A stretch of 64,000 nt of DNA from NCBI RefSeq assembly GCF_002094305.1, contig NZ_LWTX01000002.1, positions 186,001 to 250,000 on the forward strand, given 5' to 3'. Under the pieces are notes generated by a model. The model was given only the letters and a program-made list of their open reading frames with translations, searched no databases and was not told the origin of the DNA. A program made the position numbers and the translations under genes. The DNA is from Prescottella equi. Its GTDB lineage: Bacteria > Actinomycetota > Actinomycetes > Mycobacteriales > Mycobacteriaceae. Shown here one piece after another: positions 5,035-22,230 of the stretch (position 1 is its first letter; every line of letters starts with the position of its first letter).

Positions 5035-5649
5035 CTACAGCGGACGCACCGTCTCCGTGCACACCGTGAATTCGCGCTCGTCGTGGACGTAGCCGCCCTC
5101 CGAGCACTGCTCGACGTCGACGACGCCCTCGATGACCTCGATCGCACGCTCGATACCCGGAGCGTACGGGTCGTCGCACTCGACACGCTGCGGTTCGTCG
5201 TCGTCACCGTCCGGCAGGCTCATGCACCCGCCCATCACCCAGTCGATGTCGAGGCACAGCGCACCACGTTCGTTGCCCCAGCGGGTCTCGTAGTACACCT
5301 GGTCGACGTCCGACGCGCACTGCGCGTTCTTCGCGGCCTTGCCGACGACCTTGTAGTTGGATTTGTCACTGCCGCACACCGCTTCGTCGATCGTCGCGGC
5401 GTCCGCCGTTCCGCCCAGGCGAACACAGTCACCGATCTCGACGTCGATGTCGACCCGTCCACCGAGATCGGCCTCGCGTGGTGCGGTCGATGACGTCGAC
5501 GATGACGACGACGTCGCGGCCGCGGAAGTACTCGCGGCGGTCGCCGTACCGTCGACGGACGTCCCACATCCCGCCGCGGTCAACGCCGCGGCCACGACCA
5601 CAACCGCACCCGATCGTCGCACGATCGCCCGAATTCCCTTGTTCACCAT
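5035..5649 (-). CDS. LppU/SCO3897-family lipoprotein
   Basis: Predicted surface lipoprotein of 204 aa. The ATG at 5649 begins a basic segment followed by a hydrophobic run ending in the lipobox LTAAGC; an upstream ATG at 5661 would add four residues. After the lipidated Cys there is a long Ser/Thr/Ala linker, then an acidic domain with several Cys (GDCVRLGG, EAVCGSDKSNYKVVGK, NAQCASD, ALCLDI, GGCMSLPDG, RVECDD, EQCSEGG, TVCTET) matching the LppU type. The even spacing of cysteines suggests disulfides. The molecular role of the family is not known. It lies directly downstream of rsmA on the same strand. Confidence 0.8.
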   Translation of the reverse strand: MVNKGIRAIVRRSGAVVVVAAALTAAGCGTSVDGTATAASTSAAATSSSSSTSSTAPREADLGGRVDIDVEIGDCVRLGGTADAATIDEAVCGSDKSNYKVVGKAAKNAQCASDVDQVYYETRWGNERGALCLDIDWVMGGCMSLPDGDDDEPQRVECDDPYAPGIERAIEVIEGVVDVEQCSEGGYVHDEREFTVCTETVRPL

Positions 5650-13926: not shown

Positions 13927-14017
13927 CAATGCGTGGACCCCGGATCGGCTGCCCCACCGGCCGGGGTCGGCGCGGTCCGATGTCGGCGGAGAGCGAGCCA
14001 CATGGAAGGCTGGACGG

Positions 14018-15313
14018 ATGCGATCGGAGCGACTCGGAGATGGTGGCAGCGCCGCCGACGTGTTCCGCGCACTGGCTCGGCGGGCTCGCTCGCGGGAGCT
14101 GGCACCACCGGCCGGCCTGATCGGGAACTGGTTCGACGCCGCCGCCGTCATCGCACCCAGCGTTCGGGCCGCTCCGCACGACGCACGATCGGCGTTCACA
14201 CTGCCGCCGCGCGGCACGGGACCGGTCCCCACCCCCGGCGACCCGATCGTCGGCGGCGGATGGATCGGCTACCGCGCCTACCCCGATCGATCCGGCATCC
14301 TGCCCGAGGCCGCGGGCGGATGGACCGATCATGTTCTGCGGCTGGACAACTCGGGTTTCTGGTGGTTCGAGAGCCTCCTCGACGAGCCGTGCCCCGAGGA
14401 CCTCGTCGACGCGGTGCGCCGACCCGACGCCGTCCCCGGCCCCTGGCACATCGACTGGACCACCCCGGACCGTCACGCCCACCGCCGCGGAGTCGAGGAC
14501 TGTCTCGACGCCATCGCCCGCGGCGACGTCTACCAGGCGTGCGTGTGCGCGCGCTTCCACGGCACCAGTTCGGGCCGCCCCGTCGACTTCTTCGCCGACG
14601 CAGTCGACCGAACCCGGCCCGGCCGAGCAGCTTTCGTGCAGGGCGATTGGGGCGCGGTAGCTTCCCTGTCCCCCGAACTGTTCCTGTCCCGCCGCGGCGG
14701 AACCGTCACCTCCAGCCCCATCAAGGGCACGCTTCCACTGAGCGAAGACCCTGCGCGGCTGCGTAATTCGGTGAAGGACGTCGCCGAGAACGTGATGATC
14801 GTCGACCTCGTCCGCAACGACCTGGGCCGCGTTGCCGACGCCGGGTCGGTCAGGGTGACCGACCTGTTGCGCGTGAAGCCCGCACCCGGCGTGTGGCACC
14901 TGGTCTCGACGGTGACCGCGGCCGTGTCGGACCGGGTGAGTGCCGCCGATCTGCTCGACGCCGCGTTCCCGCCCGCCTCGGTGACCGGGTGCCCCAAACA
15001 CTCGGCCCGGACTCTGCTCCGCGCGTGGGAACCTGACCCCCGCGGCGTCTACTGTGGGGCCGTCGGAATGCACAGCCCGCTGGCAGGACTCGAACTCAAC
15101 GTCGCGATCCGGACCGTGGAGTTCGACGCGGCCGGCCGGGTCGGGCTCGGCGTCGGCGGCGGAATCACCATCGACTCCGACCCCGACGCCGAATGGCAGG
15201 AGTGCCTGGACAAGGCGTCGAGCATCGTCACGCTCACCCAGTCCCGCACGCTCCCCGACCCGATTCCGGCATCTCGAAATGCGCCGGGCGATCCTGTGTC
15301 AGCTCCGAGGTAG
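14018..15313 (+). CDS. pabB: Aminodeoxychorismate synthase component I (chorismate-binding)
   Basis: Converts chorismate plus ammonia to 4-amino-4-deoxychorismate for folate synthesis; the amidotransferase subunit PabA is not in the window. The ATG at 14018 with GGAAGG upstream gives 431 aa. Catalytic-core motifs include YQACVCARF, SLSPELFLSRRG, SPIKGTLPLSED, AENVMIVDLVRNDLGRVADAGSV, FPPASVTGCPKHSA and the final GGGITIDSDPDAEWQECLDKAS. Anthranilate synthase TrpE is the main alternative, but the short N-terminus and the M. tuberculosis-like position favour PabB. The last 80 nt overlap the convergent WD40 gene, and the extra C-terminal tail of about 20 residues lies in that overlap. Confidence 0.88.
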   Translation: MRSERLGDGGSAADVFRALARRARSRELAPPAGLIGNWFDAAAVIAPSVRAAPHDARSAFTLPPRGTGPVPTPGDPIVGGGWIGYRAYPDRSGILPEAAGGWTDHVLRLDNSGFWWFESLLDEPCPEDLVDAVRRPDAVPGPWHIDWTTPDRHAHRRGVEDCLDAIARGDVYQACVCARFHGTSSGRPVDFFADAVDRTRPGRAAFVQGDWGAVASLSPELFLSRRGGTVTSSPIKGTLPLSEDPARLRNSVKDVAENVMIVDLVRNDLGRVADAGSVRVTDLLRVKPAPGVWHLVSTVTAAVSDRVSAADLLDAAFPPASVTGCPKHSARTLLRAWEPDPRGVYCGAVGMHSPLAGLELNVAIRTVEFDAAGRVGLGVGGGITIDSDPDAEWQECLDKASSIVTLTQSRTLPDPIPASRNAPGDPVSAPR

Positions 15314-18300
15314 ACGAACAGATCCGTGCGGTGATCGGATCCTCGTCGAGGCGCCACGTCCGCAGCACACCGTCGCCGCCGCCCGCGATCACCGTGTCGG
15401 TCCGCGGCAGGAACGCGACCTGCCAACGTCCGGTGCCGATGGTGGTGAGCGGCCCGCCCACCTCCTCCGCCTCACCGGCGCCGTCGACGTTCCACAGCCG
15501 CACCGAACCGTCGTCGCTGCCGCTGACCACGTGGGTGCCGTCGCCGCCGAACGCGACGCTGTACACCGTGCCGGTGTGTCCACGCAGCGGCACCGGGCGG
15601 GGCGTGAAACCCCCGTCGTCGTCCCGATCCCACAGCACCAGCGTGTGATCGTCGCTGGCGGTCACGAGGGTGTCGCCGTCCGGACCGAACGAGACGGCAT
15701 TGACGCCACCGTCGTGCCCGCCGGCACGGACCGGAAGCGATGCGGGCTTCTCCGGCGTGGACACGTCCCATGCGTAGATGTCGCCGTCGGCGCTCGACGC
15801 GACCAGGACGTCGCCGTCGGGCCCGAACGCGACGCTCCGCACCAGGTTCCCTGGACCGGTGAGACGCTCCCCCAGCCGCACCGGGTTGCGCGGATCCTGC
15901 ACGTCCCACAGCGCGACGCTGAAGTCGTCGTCGCCGATCGCCAGTGTCCGGCCGTCCGGGCTGAACGCCATCTCCCACGTGAACCGCGTCGCCGTCGTGA
16001 TCGGTGCCCCCAGCGCAGCCGGGTGCTCCGGATCGGCGACGTCCCACAACTGGACGTGGCCGCCCGACGTCTGGGTCGTCGCCAGCACCTTGCCGTCCGG
16101 CGACAGCTCGACCACGTTGCCGCCGCCGAGCGGTCGCGGCAACTCGATCGTGCCGGCGCGGTCCATCTCCCCGGCAGCCGACACCTTCCACAACCGCACC
16201 TGCGAGTCGTATCCGGCGGTCACCACCCGGGAGCCGTCGCTGTTGATCGACGGCAAGGTCATCGACGCGTCCGACACCGGCACCGTTCCCGCCGGCAGTG
16301 TCCACATCCGCACGATCGAATCCTGGCCACCCGTGACGATCGTCGTGCCGTCGGGCGAGAGCGCGAGCGCGGGGACACCGCCGCCGTTGCCGCTGAGCGC
16401 GGGCCGCAGTTCGTGCACCGCGCGGGTCCCCGGATCGACCGACCACAGCTTCGCGGTGCCGTCCCACGACGCACTCGCCAACGTCGACCCGTCGGCGGCG
16501 AACGCGACGGTCCAGATGCCGCCCGTATGGGCCTGCACCGGGGCGCCGACCTGACGGATGTCCGCGAGATTCGTGGCGTCGAAGACGCGGATCATGCCGT
16601 CGTCGCTACTCGCCGCGAGCGTCGTGCCGTCGGGGCTGAACGACACCGAGTGCGCGACGTCGTCGAAGCCCGTCAGATCCCGCCCCACCTGGACGGGGCG
16701 GGCGGGGTCGGCGACGTCCCACACCCGCACGGTGCGGTCGTCACTCGACGTCGCCATCACGGTGCCGCCGCGGAACGACACCGTGCGCACCGCACCGGAG
16801 TGTGCCCGCAGCGTGAATGCGGGGAACTCTCCCGAATCCGGCTTCGTGGTGTCGAACAGCGTGACCGTGCCGTCGTCGTGCGGCACCGCCAGCAACCGGC
16901 CGTCCGGGCTGAACCGGACGTTGTGCACCGCACCGGGCGCGTTCCGCTGCCCCGACATCAGTGCTCGCGGCGCGGACCGGTCACCGATGTCCCAGATCCA
17001 CATCGTGCCGTCGCCGCCGCCGGCCGCGAGGAGATGCCCGTCGGGGCTGAACGAGACCGACGCCATGTACTGGTCCGGTCCGGTCAGCTCCTGCCCGATC
17101 TGTACCGGAACGGAACCGTCGGCGAGATCCCACAGCCGCACGGAACGGTCGTCGCTCGCGGTCGCGAGGGTCCGTCCGTCGGCGGAGAACGCGACGCCGT
17201 ACACCGGACCGGTGTGGCCGGTCAGGCTGCGCGAGATGGGCGTGGTCTCGGTGGCGACCAGGCGGGAGAACGCGTCGTCGCTGCCGGGTCGCATCCGCCA
17301 CGCGGCCAACGACAACTGCGCCGACGTGGTGGGGTCGCTCTCCCGCAGTGCGTCGGCGAGGGCGACCACCTGCTGGAACTGCGCGGCGCTCCGCTCGTCC
17401 TCGGCGCGCGACTTCGCGGCCAGCGCCATCGCGCCCATCGCGACCGCGACGACGGTCGACAGCGCCAGCGCGGTCATGACGGTGCGTTTGCGCCACGTCT
17501 GCCGCCGCACCTGCCCCACCGACGCCTCCAGGAAATCCGCGGCCGCGGGGGGTCAGCGACGCCGCCACCGCCTCGACAGCGCTCTCCCCCGTCGGAGTTC
17601 CGTGATCGGCTCGGGTCTGCGCGTGCTCGGTCAGCAGGTCGAGCCGACCGCGGTGGTAGAGCAGGCTGCTGTTGCGGTCCGAGTCCTCCCAGTGCACGGC
17701 GTCCGTCTCGATCTGTTGGCGCAGCGCGGAGTAGGAGCGGTCCTCCTGGATCCAGGTCCGGAGCCGCGGCCACGTGTAGATCACCGCGTCGTGGATCAGC
17801 TCGACCGCGTCGCCGTCGGCCACGAGCACCCGGGCGTTGACGAAGTGGTCCACCACGCGGCGTCCCGCTCCGGTGTCGTCGCCCTCGAGTGCCAGCAGCT
17901 GAGGGATCGTGCGACGGATCTTCACGTCGGTGCCGGTGCTGGTGACGTAGACCAGATGCACGAACATCGCCCGCGCGAGCACCCGGCCGCGTTCGTCGAG
18001 TTGCTCCCACGCACGCTCGGCGGCGGCCGCGATGGACCCCCGCACCCCGCCGGTGGCGCGGTAGTTCGCGATGGTGAGCTGTCCTCCGCGGCGCCGCTCC
18101 CACATCGTGTCGAGCAGGTGCGAGACCAGCGGCAGCACGGTGTCGCTGCTCTCGGAGGGGTTGGGCGACGCCGCGGTGAGTACGCCGAGATCGTTGAGGA
18201 TGAGGTCGACCAGGCCCGGCTCGAGCTTGAGCCCGATCATGCGGGCCGGTTTCGTGATCACCTCGACGACGTCCTCCCGCAGGAGGGGCGAGACCGTCTT

Positions 18301-19302
18301 GCTGCGCTGTTCGAGCGCCCGCGCGAGCACCGGATGGGTGAGCGCCTGCGGATAGAAGTCCGATCGCATCGTCGCGACGACCGACGTCGTATCGGTCGCC
18401 CCGCCGCCGACGGGTGCCGTCGCGGCCAGGTCGAGCACCGTCAGGAAGGCCGCCCGCTCGTCGGCGTCGGAGCACTGCGAGAACAGTTCCTCGATCTGGT
18501 CGACCACGATCAGCAGGTGGTGGGCGCCGAGCCGTTCCGCCGCGCGGCCCAAGGCGTCGTGGAGCTGGTCGGCGCTCGGGACGTCCTCCGTCAGCTCGGG
18601 CACTGCGGACCGCAGCGACGTCAGGGGGTGCGCACCCGGCGCGAAGACCACCGCCGCGTAAGCGCTGCGATCGCCGTCCTGGTCGAGGGCCTTCAGCTGC
18701 GGAATCAACCCGGCCTGGACCAGCGACGACTTGCCTACGCCCGAGGCGCCGGTGACGATCACGATGCCCTTGCCCTGAGCCGCCTCGACCGCGGCGACGA
18801 GTCCGTCGACGCTCTGGGTGCGCCCGAAGAACAGCCGCTCGTCCTTCTCCCGGTACGGCGCCAGGCCGCGATAGGGCCGCACCCCGGCCGGCAACGTCGC
18901 CGGCGCCGGCTCCCCGGCTGCCGCGGCCGCCGCCTTCGTCGTGGGGACGGAGCTGGCCTTGCGCCACCACGCCTCCCACTGGCGCATCGAGAAGAGTCCA
19001 TCGGTGGGTGGCGGACCCTCGTGGAGCGCGCGGGCCATCCGGATGAGGACCGCCAGCACCGGGCGGACCGACTCGAACGTGGCCGGCATCCGCTTGCCCG
19101 ACCGCCAGTCGCTGATGCGCTGGACCGAGGCGGGCTTCTCCCCGCCGACCGAGCGACCGAGTGTCGCGGCCTCGGCGGCGACCTTCTTCAGCGGGGGACC
19201 GCCGGCGGTCGCGAACAGCAGCCGCAGCTGGTCGGCGAACATCAACCGCGCCTCCGCGCCGGACCGTTCCGCGTCCTGCGGGGCCTCGCTGTCCGCTGTC
19301 AT
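15234..19302 (-). pseudogene. nSTAND-NTPase/WD40 signalling protein, split by a homopolymer frameshift
   Basis: One large gene in two frames. From 19302 the frame encodes a DNA-binding-like helical head (about residues 20-90, with SDWRSGKRMPATFESV), a linker, then an nSTAND NTPase domain with Walker A GASGVGKSS (185-193) and a Walker B around LLIVVDQIEELF. The frame breaks at a run of six G on the plus strand (17547-17552); removing one base restores SLTP-AAADFLEASVGQVRRQ without a gap. The other frame then encodes a transmembrane helix and 14 WD40 blades, enough for two seven-bladed propellers, closing with an ICSST...C tail. Repaired length is 1,355 aa. It could be a real null allele, a phase-variable switch, +1 slippage at CCC-C, or a sequencing error. 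STAND/WD40 proteins act as signal-triggered switches and some are anti-phage; the role here is inference. Uncorrected halves: 19302 to about 17550, and 17519-15234. Confidence 0.85.
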
Positions 19303-19383
19303 CGCGCTGGTCGTTCCTTCCCTGTCGCCGGCCGGGCGTTCCCCCCGGTTCGGGCCCGTTTCCGCGCTCGGCAGCCCCCGCGG

Positions 19384-19398
19384 ATTCCGCTGCGGAAT
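19384..19398. promoter_or_regulatory. Perfect 15-bp palindrome upstream of the nSTAND gene
   Basis: ATTCCGC-T-GCGGAAT lies 82 nt upstream of the nSTAND start and about 195 nt before the divergent 57-aa peptide gene, in the AT-richest part of this gap. It looks like an operator for a dimeric regulator. The binding protein is unknown. Confidence 0.4.
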
Positions 19399-19593
19399 AA
19401 TTCCTCACCGCCCGCGAACAGGGATGATAGCTCGTCTTGCGAACCATCCAGTTCGTCCGTTCCGCCGAATGGGGCAAAGTCGACGTCGACGCACAAAGGC
19501 CCTGCGCCAGCGGTGCTGCAACCGGTGGGGGTTGGAGAAATCCACGAGGGGTATCCCCTGCCGGGTGCAGCGTCCAACGGAGGAGGAACTCGG

Positions 19594-19767
19594 ATGATCG
19601 CGATGGCGACCAGACTGACGGCGAAGACACCGCCGGCTGTCGGGGCAGGTCTGGTCATCGCCGCGACCGTGGGCCTGATGTTGCTGTTGGGTGCGGCCCC
19701 CGCCGATGCGGTCGCTGCCCCGGTGGGGGGTGCTCCGGTTTCGACCGGAGCACCCGCCCCGGAGTAG
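19594..19767 (+). CDS. Small secreted or membrane peptide, 57 aa
   Basis: An ATG at 19594 is preceded by GGAGGAGG with ideal spacing, among the strongest ribosome sites in the window. The product has a short basic N-terminus (MIAMATRLTAK), one hydrophobic helix (about residues 16-35) ending in an AXA-like ADAVAA, and a short Gly/Pro/Ala tail. It could be a cleaved secreted peptide of about 20 residues or a single-pass membrane peptide. No family recognised. Divergent from the nSTAND gene and convergent with rsmI. Confidence 0.65.
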   Translation: MIAMATRLTAKTPPAVGAGLVIAATVGLMLLLGAAPADAVAAPVGGAPVSTGAPAPE

Positions 19768-19816
19768 TCGCTCGACGGGGGTCGGCGGGAACCGCGTTCC
19801 CAGCGCTCCGAACGCG

Positions 19817-20647
19817 TCAGTCCCTTCGCGATGCCAGTACGGTCTCGTACAGCTCGCGCTTCGACACGCCCTCGGTGGCCACCTGCGCGCACGCGTCCTT
19901 CAATCGCGCTCCGTCCGCCACGAGCCGTTCGACCTCGGCGACGAGATCCTCCGGATCCGCTGCGACCATCTGCGCACCCTCGAGAACGACGGTGATCTCA
20001 CCGCGTGCGCCGTCCACGGCCCACTCGGCGAGCTCGGCCAGTGTCCCGCGGCGCACTTCCTCGTACGTCTTCGTCAATTCCCGGCACACCGCCGCCCTAC
20101 GGGTGCCTCCGAGCACATCCACCGCGTCCGCAAGACACGCGGCCAGCCGGTGCGGCGCTTCGAAGAAGACACACGCCCGCGGCTCGGTCTTCAGAGTTTC
20201 GAACCACGTCCGGCGCTGACCCTGCTTGCGGGGCGGGAATCCGTCGAAGCAGAACCGCTCCACCGGCAGCCCGGACAGAGCGAGCGCCGTGGTGACCGCC
20301 GACGGGCCGGGCAGGCACGTCACCGGTAGGTCCTTCTCGACGCACGCCGCTACCAACCGGTAGCCGGGGTCGCTCACGGACGGCATCCCGGCGTCGGTCA
20401 CGAGCAGTACGGTGCGGCCCTCCTCGACGTCCGCCACGAGCACCGGCAGCCGAGCCACCTCCACCTGGTCGTAGAAGCTGACGACACGTCCGGTGATCGT
20501 GACCCCCAGGGCCGCGGCCAGTGCCTTCGTGCGCCGGGTGTCCTCGGCGGCCACGACGTCGGCGGATCCGAGGGCTGTGCGCAGGCGTTCGGAGGCGTCA
20601 CCGATGTCCCCCATGGGAGTTGCGGCGAGGACGAGGCGACCAGTCAT
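19817..20647 (-). CDS. rsmI: 16S rRNA (cytidine1402-2'-O)-methyltransferase RsmI
   Basis: Methylates the ribose of C1402 in the 30S decoding centre, using SAM. The 276-aa protein has the tetrapyrrole-methylase fold signatures LVLAATPMGDIGDAS near the start, AAEDTRRTKAL, TDAGMPSVSDPGYRLV and CLPGPSAVTTALALSGLP. ATG at 20647. It is divergent from pmt with 23 nt between starts, an arrangement conserved in mycobacteria, so the two genes share a compact bidirectional promoter. Confidence 0.95.
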   Translation of the reverse strand: MTGRLVLAATPMGDIGDASERLRTALGSADVVAAEDTRRTKALAAALGVTITGRVVSFYDQVEVARLPVLVADVEEGRTVLLVTDAGMPSVSDPGYRLVAACVEKDLPVTCLPGPSAVTTALALSGLPVERFCFDGFPPRKQGQRRTWFETLKTEPRACVFFEAPHRLAACLADAVDVLGGTRRAAVCRELTKTYEEVRRGTLAELAEWAVDGARGEITVVLEGAQMVAADPEDLVAEVERLVADGARLKDACAQVATEGVSKRELYETVLASRRD

Positions 20648-20670
20648 GGGTGACAGCCTACGATCGACAC

Positions 20671-22230
20671 GTGACCCAGCTGACGGACGAGCACCCCGCG
20701 CCCTCGTCCGGCGGACCCCGGACCGTCAGCCCCGCTCCGATGGCCCCGCCACCGGACTTCGGCCCCACCGACCGCCGACGCGGCTGGATCGCGACCCTCG
20801 TGGTCACCGCGCTCGCCGCCATCACGCGGTTCGTGATGCTGAACTACCCCACCGACGCGGGCACCCCGGTCTTCGACGAGAAGCACTACGTGCCGCAGGG
20901 ATGGCAGGTCCTCACCGGTGGCGGGCTCGAGGACAATCCGGGATACGGGCTGGTGGTGCATCCGCCGGTCGGCAAGCAGCTGATCGCGATGGGCGAGGCC
21001 CTCTTCGGCTACAACGCGTGGGGCTGGCGGTTCGCGTCGGCACTCGCCGGGACGATCCTCGTGCTGTTGGTGATGCGGATCGTCCGGCGGATGACCCGGT
21101 CGACGCTGATCGGCACGATCGCCGGCGTCCTGCTGATCGTCGACGGCGTCACCTTCGTCTCGTCCCGGCTCGGAATGCTGGACATCTTCCTCGCCCTGTT
21201 CACCGTCGCGGCGCTCGGTTGCCTGGTCGTCGACCGGGACCAAGTCCGCGAGCGGATGGCCCGGGTCCGGGCGGAGGGACGTATCGGCGTCACCGAGTTC
21301 GGCCCCCGGCTGGGCGTGCGGTGGTGGCGATTCGGGGCCGGGCTCATGCTCGGTCTCGCGTGCGGCACCAAGTGGTCCGGCATGTACTTCATCGCGTTCT
21401 TCGGCCTGCTGTGCGTCGGGTACGACATCGCCGCGCGCCGCGCGTACGGGGTGCGGCGGCCGTGGGTCGGCACCGCGATCCGTGACATCGTCCCGTCGCT
21501 GTACGCGCTCGTCGTGGTGCCGCTGATCGTGTACCTCGGTACGTACGGCGCGTGGTTCGCGAGCGAGACCGGCGTCGACCGGCACGCCGCCGGAAATCAG
21601 ATCGGCACGGGCGGGCCGTTCTCGTTCGTACCGGAGGCCCTGCGGTCGCTGTGGTACTACAGCGCCAAGGTGCTCGAGTTCCATTCGGGCCTGACCAACT
21701 CGGCCGGCAACCACCATCCGTGGGAGTCGAAGCCGTGGACGTGGCCGATGGGTCTGCGCCCGATGCTCTACTACTTCGCCGAGGGCGAGCACGTGTCCGG
21801 CTGCGGCGGGCCCAGTTGTGTCAAGGCGGTGATGCTGGTCGGCACACCCGCGATGTGGTGGCTGGCTCTTCCGGTCCTCGGGTGGGCGCTGTGGCGCACC
21901 TTCGTCAGCCGCGACTGGCGCTACGCGACGGTTCTGACCGGCTATGCGGCCGCACTGCTGCCGTGGTTCGTGACGCTGGACCGTCAGATGTACTACTTCT
22001 ACGCGGTCGCCCTGGCCCCGTTCTTCGTGATGGCGATCGCGCTCGTCCTCGGTGAGCTCCTCGGCGCCGCCAAGGCGTCGGCCGAACGGCGCGGCACGGG
22101 CCTGCTCGCGGTGTGTCTCTACGTGGGGCTGGTGATCGCGAACTTCGTGTGGCTGTGGCCGATCCTGACGGCCGTGCCGATCACGCCGGAGATGTGGCAG
22201 CAGCAACTGTGGTTGCCGAGCTGGCGCTGA
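20671..22230 (+). CDS. pmt: Polyprenol-phosphate-mannose:protein mannosyltransferase
   Basis: Transfers mannose from polyprenyl-phosphate-mannose to Ser/Thr of exported proteins on the outer face of the membrane; actinobacterial Pmt acts on Sec-exported lipoproteins and secreted enzymes. The GTG at 20671 gives 519 aa (GT39 family). The first loop carries the conserved acidic FDEKHYVPQ and HPPVGKQLI, and there are about 10-11 membrane helices with the C-terminal four-helix PMT_4TMC region. Likely clients in this window include the LppU-like and FecB-like lipoproteins with Ser/Thr/Ala linkers; that is inference. Confidence 0.93.
   Translation: MTQLTDEHPAPSSGGPRTVSPAPMAPPPDFGPTDRRRGWIATLVVTALAAITRFVMLNYPTDAGTPVFDEKHYVPQGWQVLTGGGLEDNPGYGLVVHPPVGKQLIAMGEALFGYNAWGWRFASALAGTILVLLVMRIVRRMTRSTLIGTIAGVLLIVDGVTFVSSRLGMLDIFLALFTVAALGCLVVDRDQVRERMARVRAEGRIGVTEFGPRLGVRWWRFGAGLMLGLACGTKWSGMYFIAFFGLLCVGYDIAARRAYGVRRPWVGTAIRDIVPSLYALVVVPLIVYLGTYGAWFASETGVDRHAAGNQIGTGGPFSFVPEALRSLWYYSAKVLEFHSGLTNSAGNHHPWESKPWTWPMGLRPMLYYFAEGEHVSGCGGPSCVKAVMLVGTPAMWWLALPVLGWALWRTFVSRDWRYATVLTGYAAALLPWFVTLDRQMYYFYAVALAPFFVMAIALVLGELLGAAKASAERRGTGLLAVCLYVGLVIANFVWLWPILTAVPITPEMWQQQLWLPSWR

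What the first reader, a model, noticed from the sequence alone, without database searches (positions are those of the whole stretch)
17541..17556. Single-base frameshift in a G6 run splits a 1,355-aa nSTAND/WD40 gene
Removing one base from the G6 run rejoins the N-terminal NTPase frame to the WD40 frame without loss of family-like sequence (SLTP-AAADFLEAS). No other fault is seen over 4 kb. A short homopolymer could be phase-variable, could allow +1 slippage at CCC-C in the mRNA, or could be a sequencing slip. STAND-type switches are often toxic on activation, so an off-state would make biological sense.
Basis: partly seen in the sequence, partly recalled or inferred. Interest (0 to 1): 0.75.

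Follow-up and report, generated by a model that had tools for sequence, protein, structure and literature searches.

The report
Recent frameshift in conserved nSTAND-WD40 gene
A conserved membrane sensor-switch gene in a Rhodococcus-type bacterium is split into two reading frames by one base at a short G run; it looks like a recent, isolated break (or a lone assembly slip) and not a designed on/off switch.

Summary
On the minus strand, 19302-15234, one gene encodes an N-terminal region, an nSTAND1 ATPase, one membrane helix and a WD40 domain. The frame changes at the G6 run 17547-17552. Relatives with one continuous frame were found in 20 of 22 named Rhodococcus/Prescottella loci and 34 of 38 orthologue-grade genomes (the two sets overlap). 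The window's extra base is absent from all 21 loci that could be aligned there.

The gene is nearly single-copy and syntenic, so it is a core gene, not a mobile defence gene. The part after the break shows no decay: dN/dS against the nearest relative is 0.128 after it and 0.119 before it. A coding-frame scan found no other such break in about 406 kb of coding DNA of this genome; in controls it detected 47 of 60 artificial breaks. So this is a very recent one-base frameshift or a lone assembly error.

Phase variation and programmed slippage are not supported: the tract is short and no aligned relative keeps it. Strains of the same species were not available, so mutation and error cannot be separated. 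The break lies just before the membrane helix and would uncouple the ATPase from the predicted outside sensor.

The parts
17547..17552 (.). G6 run (C6 in the coding strand) at which the coding frame changes; relatives have one column fewer here
17553..19302 (-). N-terminal part in frame: unidentified N-terminal region (about residues 1-140) and nSTAND1 ATPase (PF20703, residues 143-545, E 1.3e-109)
16981..17546 (-). run-on of the N-terminal frame after the break: about 188 residues in the other frame's territory, then stop
15234..17546 (-). C-terminal part in the second frame: membrane helix, WD40 repeats (PF00400, 10 stretches) and C-terminal Cys pair; stop codon at 15234-15236
17415..17519 (-). 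first start codon of the WD40 frame (GTG, 17517-17519), with GGAGG five bases before it, followed by the predicted membrane helix (about 17415-17471); possible, untested internal start

Best explanation
A core gene for a membrane-spanning STAND protein carries a very recent one-base frameshift at a short G run, private to this strain or species. In relatives the protein is one chain: cytoplasmic N-terminal region and nSTAND1 ATPase, one membrane helix, then a WD40 domain with a conserved C-terminal cysteine pair, predicted to lie outside the membrane. Here ribosomes would make the ATPase part with a foreign tail and no sensor. The helix plus WD40 part would be made only if ribosomes start inside the message. 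The most likely effect is loss of sensor-to-ATPase coupling, a loss of function that has not yet decayed. Shown: the break in the assembly, its absence in the relatives examined, intact relatives, no decay. Inferred: that it is a true mutation, the membrane topology, the loss of function.
For: Frame change pinned to the tract. Extra base absent in 21 of 21 aligned loci. Intact in 20 of 22 named loci, in 12 of 14 genomes of the genus and in 34 of 38 orthologue-grade genomes; these sets overlap. C half dN/dS 0.128 against 0.119 for the N half; on the window branch the C half has 67 synonymous changes against 17 changed codons, the sister branch 48 against 13. If the C half had drifted freely over the whole branch, roughly 185 amino-acid changes would be expected (my rough arithmetic), so the break is younger than about 5% of the branch, or the C half is still used. 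No other such break in about 406 kb of coding DNA of this assembly, detection 47 of 60 in controls, which speaks for a real mutation over systematic error.
Against: One assembly only, no reads and no sister strains; a lone assembly error would look the same, and absence of decay is also what an error predicts. The scan only sees breaks where the upstream frame stays open at least 75 nt, and the same scan missed the real break of L049.
Confidence: 0.6

Rival explanations
1. Isolated assembly or sequencing error at a G run in 69% GC DNA; the strain's gene is intact.
For: No decay after the break; nearly all relatives intact; draft genome of 36 contigs. Two of the other three breaks among the 38 orthologue-grade genomes are in poor assemblies (G003 79% and G230 75% complete).
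Against: No other frame break found in about 406 kb of coding DNA of the same assembly, although the 464 kb examined hold 58 G/C runs of six or more, coding or not; completeness 100%, contamination 0.22.
Confidence: 0.27
2. Reversible slippage (phase variation) of the G run switches the gene on and off.
For: Homopolymer indels act this way in Mycobacterium tuberculosis (PMC11898584, passages seen). R. coprophilus L049 has an independent frame change at a GGGGGG in the same gene.
Against: Only six bases; the tract is not kept in any of 21 aligned relatives; such runs are ordinary here, and 12 of the 20 intact relatives carry a six- or seven-base G/C run elsewhere in the gene without losing the frame. 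In L049, by eye against its neighbours, a deletion beside the run fits better than tract growth.
Confidence: 0.06
3. Programmed ribosomal or transcriptional slippage makes the full-length protein from the split gene.
For: A C6 run in the message, and the two open frames overlap by 571 nt.
Against: 0 of 21 aligned relatives keep the run, and 20 of 22 loci have a continuous frame. No Rfam match at gathering score in 14000-21000.
Confidence: 0.03
4. Functional split: ATPase and membrane-WD40 halves are now made as two proteins, the second from GTG 17519.
For: GGAGG-cgtcg-GTG context; the helix follows directly and could still insert; both halves show purifying selection.
Against: The GGAGG and GTG letters are ordinary codons of the conserved stretch; the nearest relative has the GGAGG without this GTG and is one chain. 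None of the 22 named loci is split at this place.
Confidence: 0.04

Closest known systems
nSTAND1 NTPases (PF20703), named as a clade in PMC8195603
   Same: The N half matches the whole profile, E 1.3e-109; the GASGVGKSS stretch is invariant or nearly so in 22 aligned sequences.
   Different: The passages that I saw place nSTAND1 in conflict systems; here it is a core syntenic gene with a membrane helix and WD40, and no effector domain was recognised.
Apaf-1 type STAND-WD40 switch (works-like comparison)
   Same: ATPase followed by C-terminal WD40 sensor; Apaf-1 chains are among the WD40 matches of the intact relative; PMC7159879 describes the Apaf-1 case (passage).
   Different: Membrane helix between ATPase and WD40 and a predicted outside sensor; the match is in the WD40 part only; no death-fold or protease-recruiting part was recognised.
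Homopolymer-tract frameshift variants of high-GC actinobacteria (e.g. M. tuberculosis, PMC11898584)
   Same: One-base change at a G/C run in a high-GC genome.
   Different: Tract short, not conserved in relatives, no strain variation shown.

Membership tests
nSTAND1 NTPase (PF20703) | full-length profile match above cut-off | tested here: met
   367.8 bits against cut-off 27.1, residues 143-545, profile 1-378 of 379
nSTAND1 NTPase (PF20703) | intact Walker A and acidic Walker B stretch | tested here: met
   G185 A186 S187 G188 G190 K191 S192 S193 and D268 Q269 E271 E272 invariant over the 22 sequences; the motif names are recalled
Phase-variable contingency locus | long repeat tract kept in place across strains or relatives | tested here: not met
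   six bases; absent at this place in 21 of 21 aligned relatives of other species; strains not available
Phase-variable contingency locus | tract length varies between cells or strains | not testable with these tools
   no reads, one genome per species
Programmed frameshift gene | conserved slippery sequence with conserved frame change | tested here: not met
   relatives lack the run (21 of 21) and 20 of 22 loci have a continuous frame
Pseudogene | disrupted frame | tested here: met
   if the assembly is right
Pseudogene | relaxed selection or further lesions after the break | tested here: not met
   no gap codon in 767 codons; dN/dS 0.128; so at most a very young one
Anti-phage defence gene (PADLOC) | match of the ATPase half to a defence model; mobile or island setting | tested here: not met
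   0 families for the ATPase half, one repeat-type match to the WD40 half; the neighbours labelled pabB and rsmI flank the gene in 22 of 22 named Rhodococcus/Prescottella loci
HTH-containing regulator (N-terminal region) | recognisable DNA-binding domain | tested here: inconclusive
   HTH_3 in 1 of 16 members, best E 0.18; PDB search E 0.07 at best, to enzymes; resemblance by eye only

The most novel reading that the evidence does not exclude
A membrane STAND sensor-switch gene of rhodococci is repeatedly and perhaps reversibly silenced by slips at short G runs: here just before the membrane helix, in R. coprophilus inside the ATPase. The split can leave a free ATPase and a separately started membrane WD40 sensor.
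Probability: 0.07. Interest if true: 0.6.

Novelty: new member of a known kind. Interest (0 to 1): 0.2.

Why it matters
It removes a tempting but unsupported switch story and leaves a clean, cheap test (tract length in reads and strains). The useful by-product is the gene itself: a protein present in 14 of 14 genomes of the genus, joining a cytoplasmic STAND ATPase to a predicted outside WD40 sensor, with a small membrane-peptide ORF beside it in many relatives.

Tried and rejected
Programmed frameshift, phase variation and decayed pseudogene were tested and rejected or left weak. Horizontal or defence origin: not supported by synteny and family searches. Viral contigs: no stretch matched the patterns. 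HTH assignment of the N-terminus: not supported. PDB relatives of the ATPase half: only short matches to two UvrA chains at E up to 0.01. Sigma-70-type promoters and intrinsic terminators in 15200-19700: none found by consensus. Papers: one paper holds both 'Rhodococcus equi' and 'WD40' (listing only) and two hold 'nSTAND1' and 'WD40'. No title or abstract start listed names this locus; the held library only, and one search listed 10 of 60.

One search's DNA alignment mixed strands, because loci from the genome search are not all oriented alike; it is not used for any count, and one search replaced it. An earlier count said 13 of 13 sister genomes lack the base, citing; that overstates: the length test gives 12 of 13.

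The species was inferred, not read. The size, 5,197,922 bases, lies within the 5.17-5.26 Mb given for several R. equi genomes (PMC6948317, passage) and differs from R. parequi PAM 2766 (16 contigs, 5,295,699 bp; PMC11893733, passage). I therefore treated the genome as probably R. equi, an animal pathogen.

Full report
What is there. The minus strand of 19302-15234 holds one gene in two frames. The N-terminal frame begins at ATG 19302, runs past the tract and ends at 16981 (773 aa); the WD40 frame opens at 17555, with its first start codon at 17519, and its listed ORF ends at 15234. A codon-usage decode of the whole window switches frame at 17537-17550. Of eight same-strand frame changes with gaps of at most 18 nt, only this one has the upstream frame running on far beyond the change (556 nt); in the other seven it stops within about 50 nt.

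What the gene is. The N half carries nSTAND1 (PF20703, residues 143-545, E 1.3e-109); the C half carries WD40 repeats (E 9.6e-100, ten stretches). In 20 of 20 intact relatives the strongest hydrophobic stretch lies shortly after the point that corresponds to the break. The charge balance of its flanks is more positive on the N-terminal side in 13 of 20, equal in 3 and less positive in 4, so this is only weak support for an inside N-terminus. Two cysteines near the C-terminal end are kept in 20 of 20; in 17 of 20 they are the only cysteines after the helix (one more in L045, L046 and L048). I infer an inside ATPase and an outside WD40 domain closed by a disulphide; this is not tested. The first 140 residues match nothing convincingly; a helix-turn-helix is only a resemblance by eye.

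Relatives. A scan of genome contigs gave 24 loci, 22 of them Rhodococcus or Prescottella and two gammaproteobacterial metagenome bins. In 20 of the 22 one open frame of 1,328-1,653 aa (stop to stop) covers the gene; counted from the match start, the proteins are 1,312-1,364 aa. The exceptions are L044 and L049. L049 (R. coprophilus; G118 by its coordinates) changes frame at a GGGGGG inside the ATPase. In the genus, 14 of 14 genomes have a strong nSTAND1 match at this locus, 12 of 14 with an open frame of at least 1,370 aa; G004 has a second strong copy elsewhere. In a draw of 251 genomes of the family, 70 matched at E 1e-60 or better. Of the 38 at 58% identity or more, 34 have an open frame of at least 1,328 aa; the other four are G000 (the window), G003, G230 (75% complete, 950 contigs) and G118. 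The named loci and the G genomes overlap, so these counts are not independent. The neighbours that I label pabB and rsmI from their sequence (labels recalled) lie on the two sides of the gene in 22 of 22 named loci; rsmI stands farther off in one subgroup.

Is the tract special? At the junction 21 of 21 aligned loci have one column fewer and none has the six-base run (L045 of 22 not aligned). G/C runs of six or more occur 7 times in the window, fewer than the 47 of a first-order random model, and 51 times in 400 kb elsewhere in the genome (48 of six, 3 of seven). Of the 20 intact relatives, 12 carry a six- or seven-base G/C run elsewhere in the gene without losing the frame. PMC2831843 (passages seen) reports that G and C tracts are generally under-represented in the genomes it evaluated, in line with this.

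Age of the break. Against the nearest relative (L029), dN/dS is 0.119 before the break and 0.128 after it; the first 190 codons after the break give 0.158, on few changes. On the window's own branch the C half has 67 synonymous changes against 17 changed codons, the sister branch 48 against 13. In the N half, before the break, the window branch has 47 against 15 and the sister branch 47 against 5, so if either half leans to faster change on the window branch it is the N half. By my rough arithmetic neutral drift of the C half over the whole branch would have given about 185 amino-acid changes, so the break is younger than about 5% of the branch, or the C half is still in use, or there is no break in the living strain.

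Error or mutation? The same kind of decode on 20 further stretches (400 kb, 350,573 coding nt) plus the window (55,717 coding nt) found one break in all, this one. In a control with 60 artificial single-base insertions, placed at least 300 nt inside coding segments longer than 700 nt, it found 47. The scan needs an upstream frame that stays open at least 75 nt, and it missed the real break of L049, so short run-ons escape it. The assembly is not generally faulty, which favours a real mutation, but one lone error cannot be excluded. No strain of the same species and no reads were available.

Mechanism and weight. Most likely (0.6) a recent real frameshift that uncouples the ATPase from membrane and sensor; next (0.27) a lone assembly error. 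A functional split from the GTG at 17519, which has a GGAGG five bases before it, is possible but rests on letters that are ordinary codons in relatives. Phase variation and ribosomal slippage lack a conserved tract.

In print. nSTAND1 is named as a clade in PMC8195603 (passages) and used in PMC10907252 (passages); PMC7159879 (passages) describes the Apaf-1 WD40 case. Homopolymer phase variants in M. tuberculosis are in PMC11898584 (passages). The species context comes from PMC11893733 and PMC6948317 (passages). None of the passages that I saw treats this locus; I read no paper in full.

Noticed in passing
window 19594-19767, + strand: A 57-aa ORF with GGAGGAGG before its ATG and one hydrophobic segment, divergent from the nSTAND gene. 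Similar 36-57 aa ORFs lie just upstream of the gene in 13 of 22 named loci, plus a longer form in L044, also where rsmI is farther off. Codon evidence is mixed: more changed than silent codons in all four pairs compared. Possibly a small membrane partner.
   Followed up: partly
L049 7008-7013: R. coprophilus: independent frame change at a GGGGGG inside the ATPase part of the same gene.
   Followed up: partly
L044 6437-6441 and 7614-7615: Two frame breaks in the same gene in a 79%-complete Prescottella assembly; probably assembly quality.
   Followed up: partly
L053 (G004:C11:68487-69584): A second strong nSTAND1 gene, 1,269-aa open frame, in the nearest sister genome; the window's genome shows only one match of such strength.
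   Followed up: no
window 15246-15320, - strand: C-terminal Cys pair of the WD40 part, present also in 20 of 20 intact relatives; suggests an extracytoplasmic disulphide.
   Followed up: partly
window 5469-5476: Decoded coding frame changes on the minus strand with the upstream stop about 40 nt beyond; perhaps an ordinary gene overlap.
   Followed up: no
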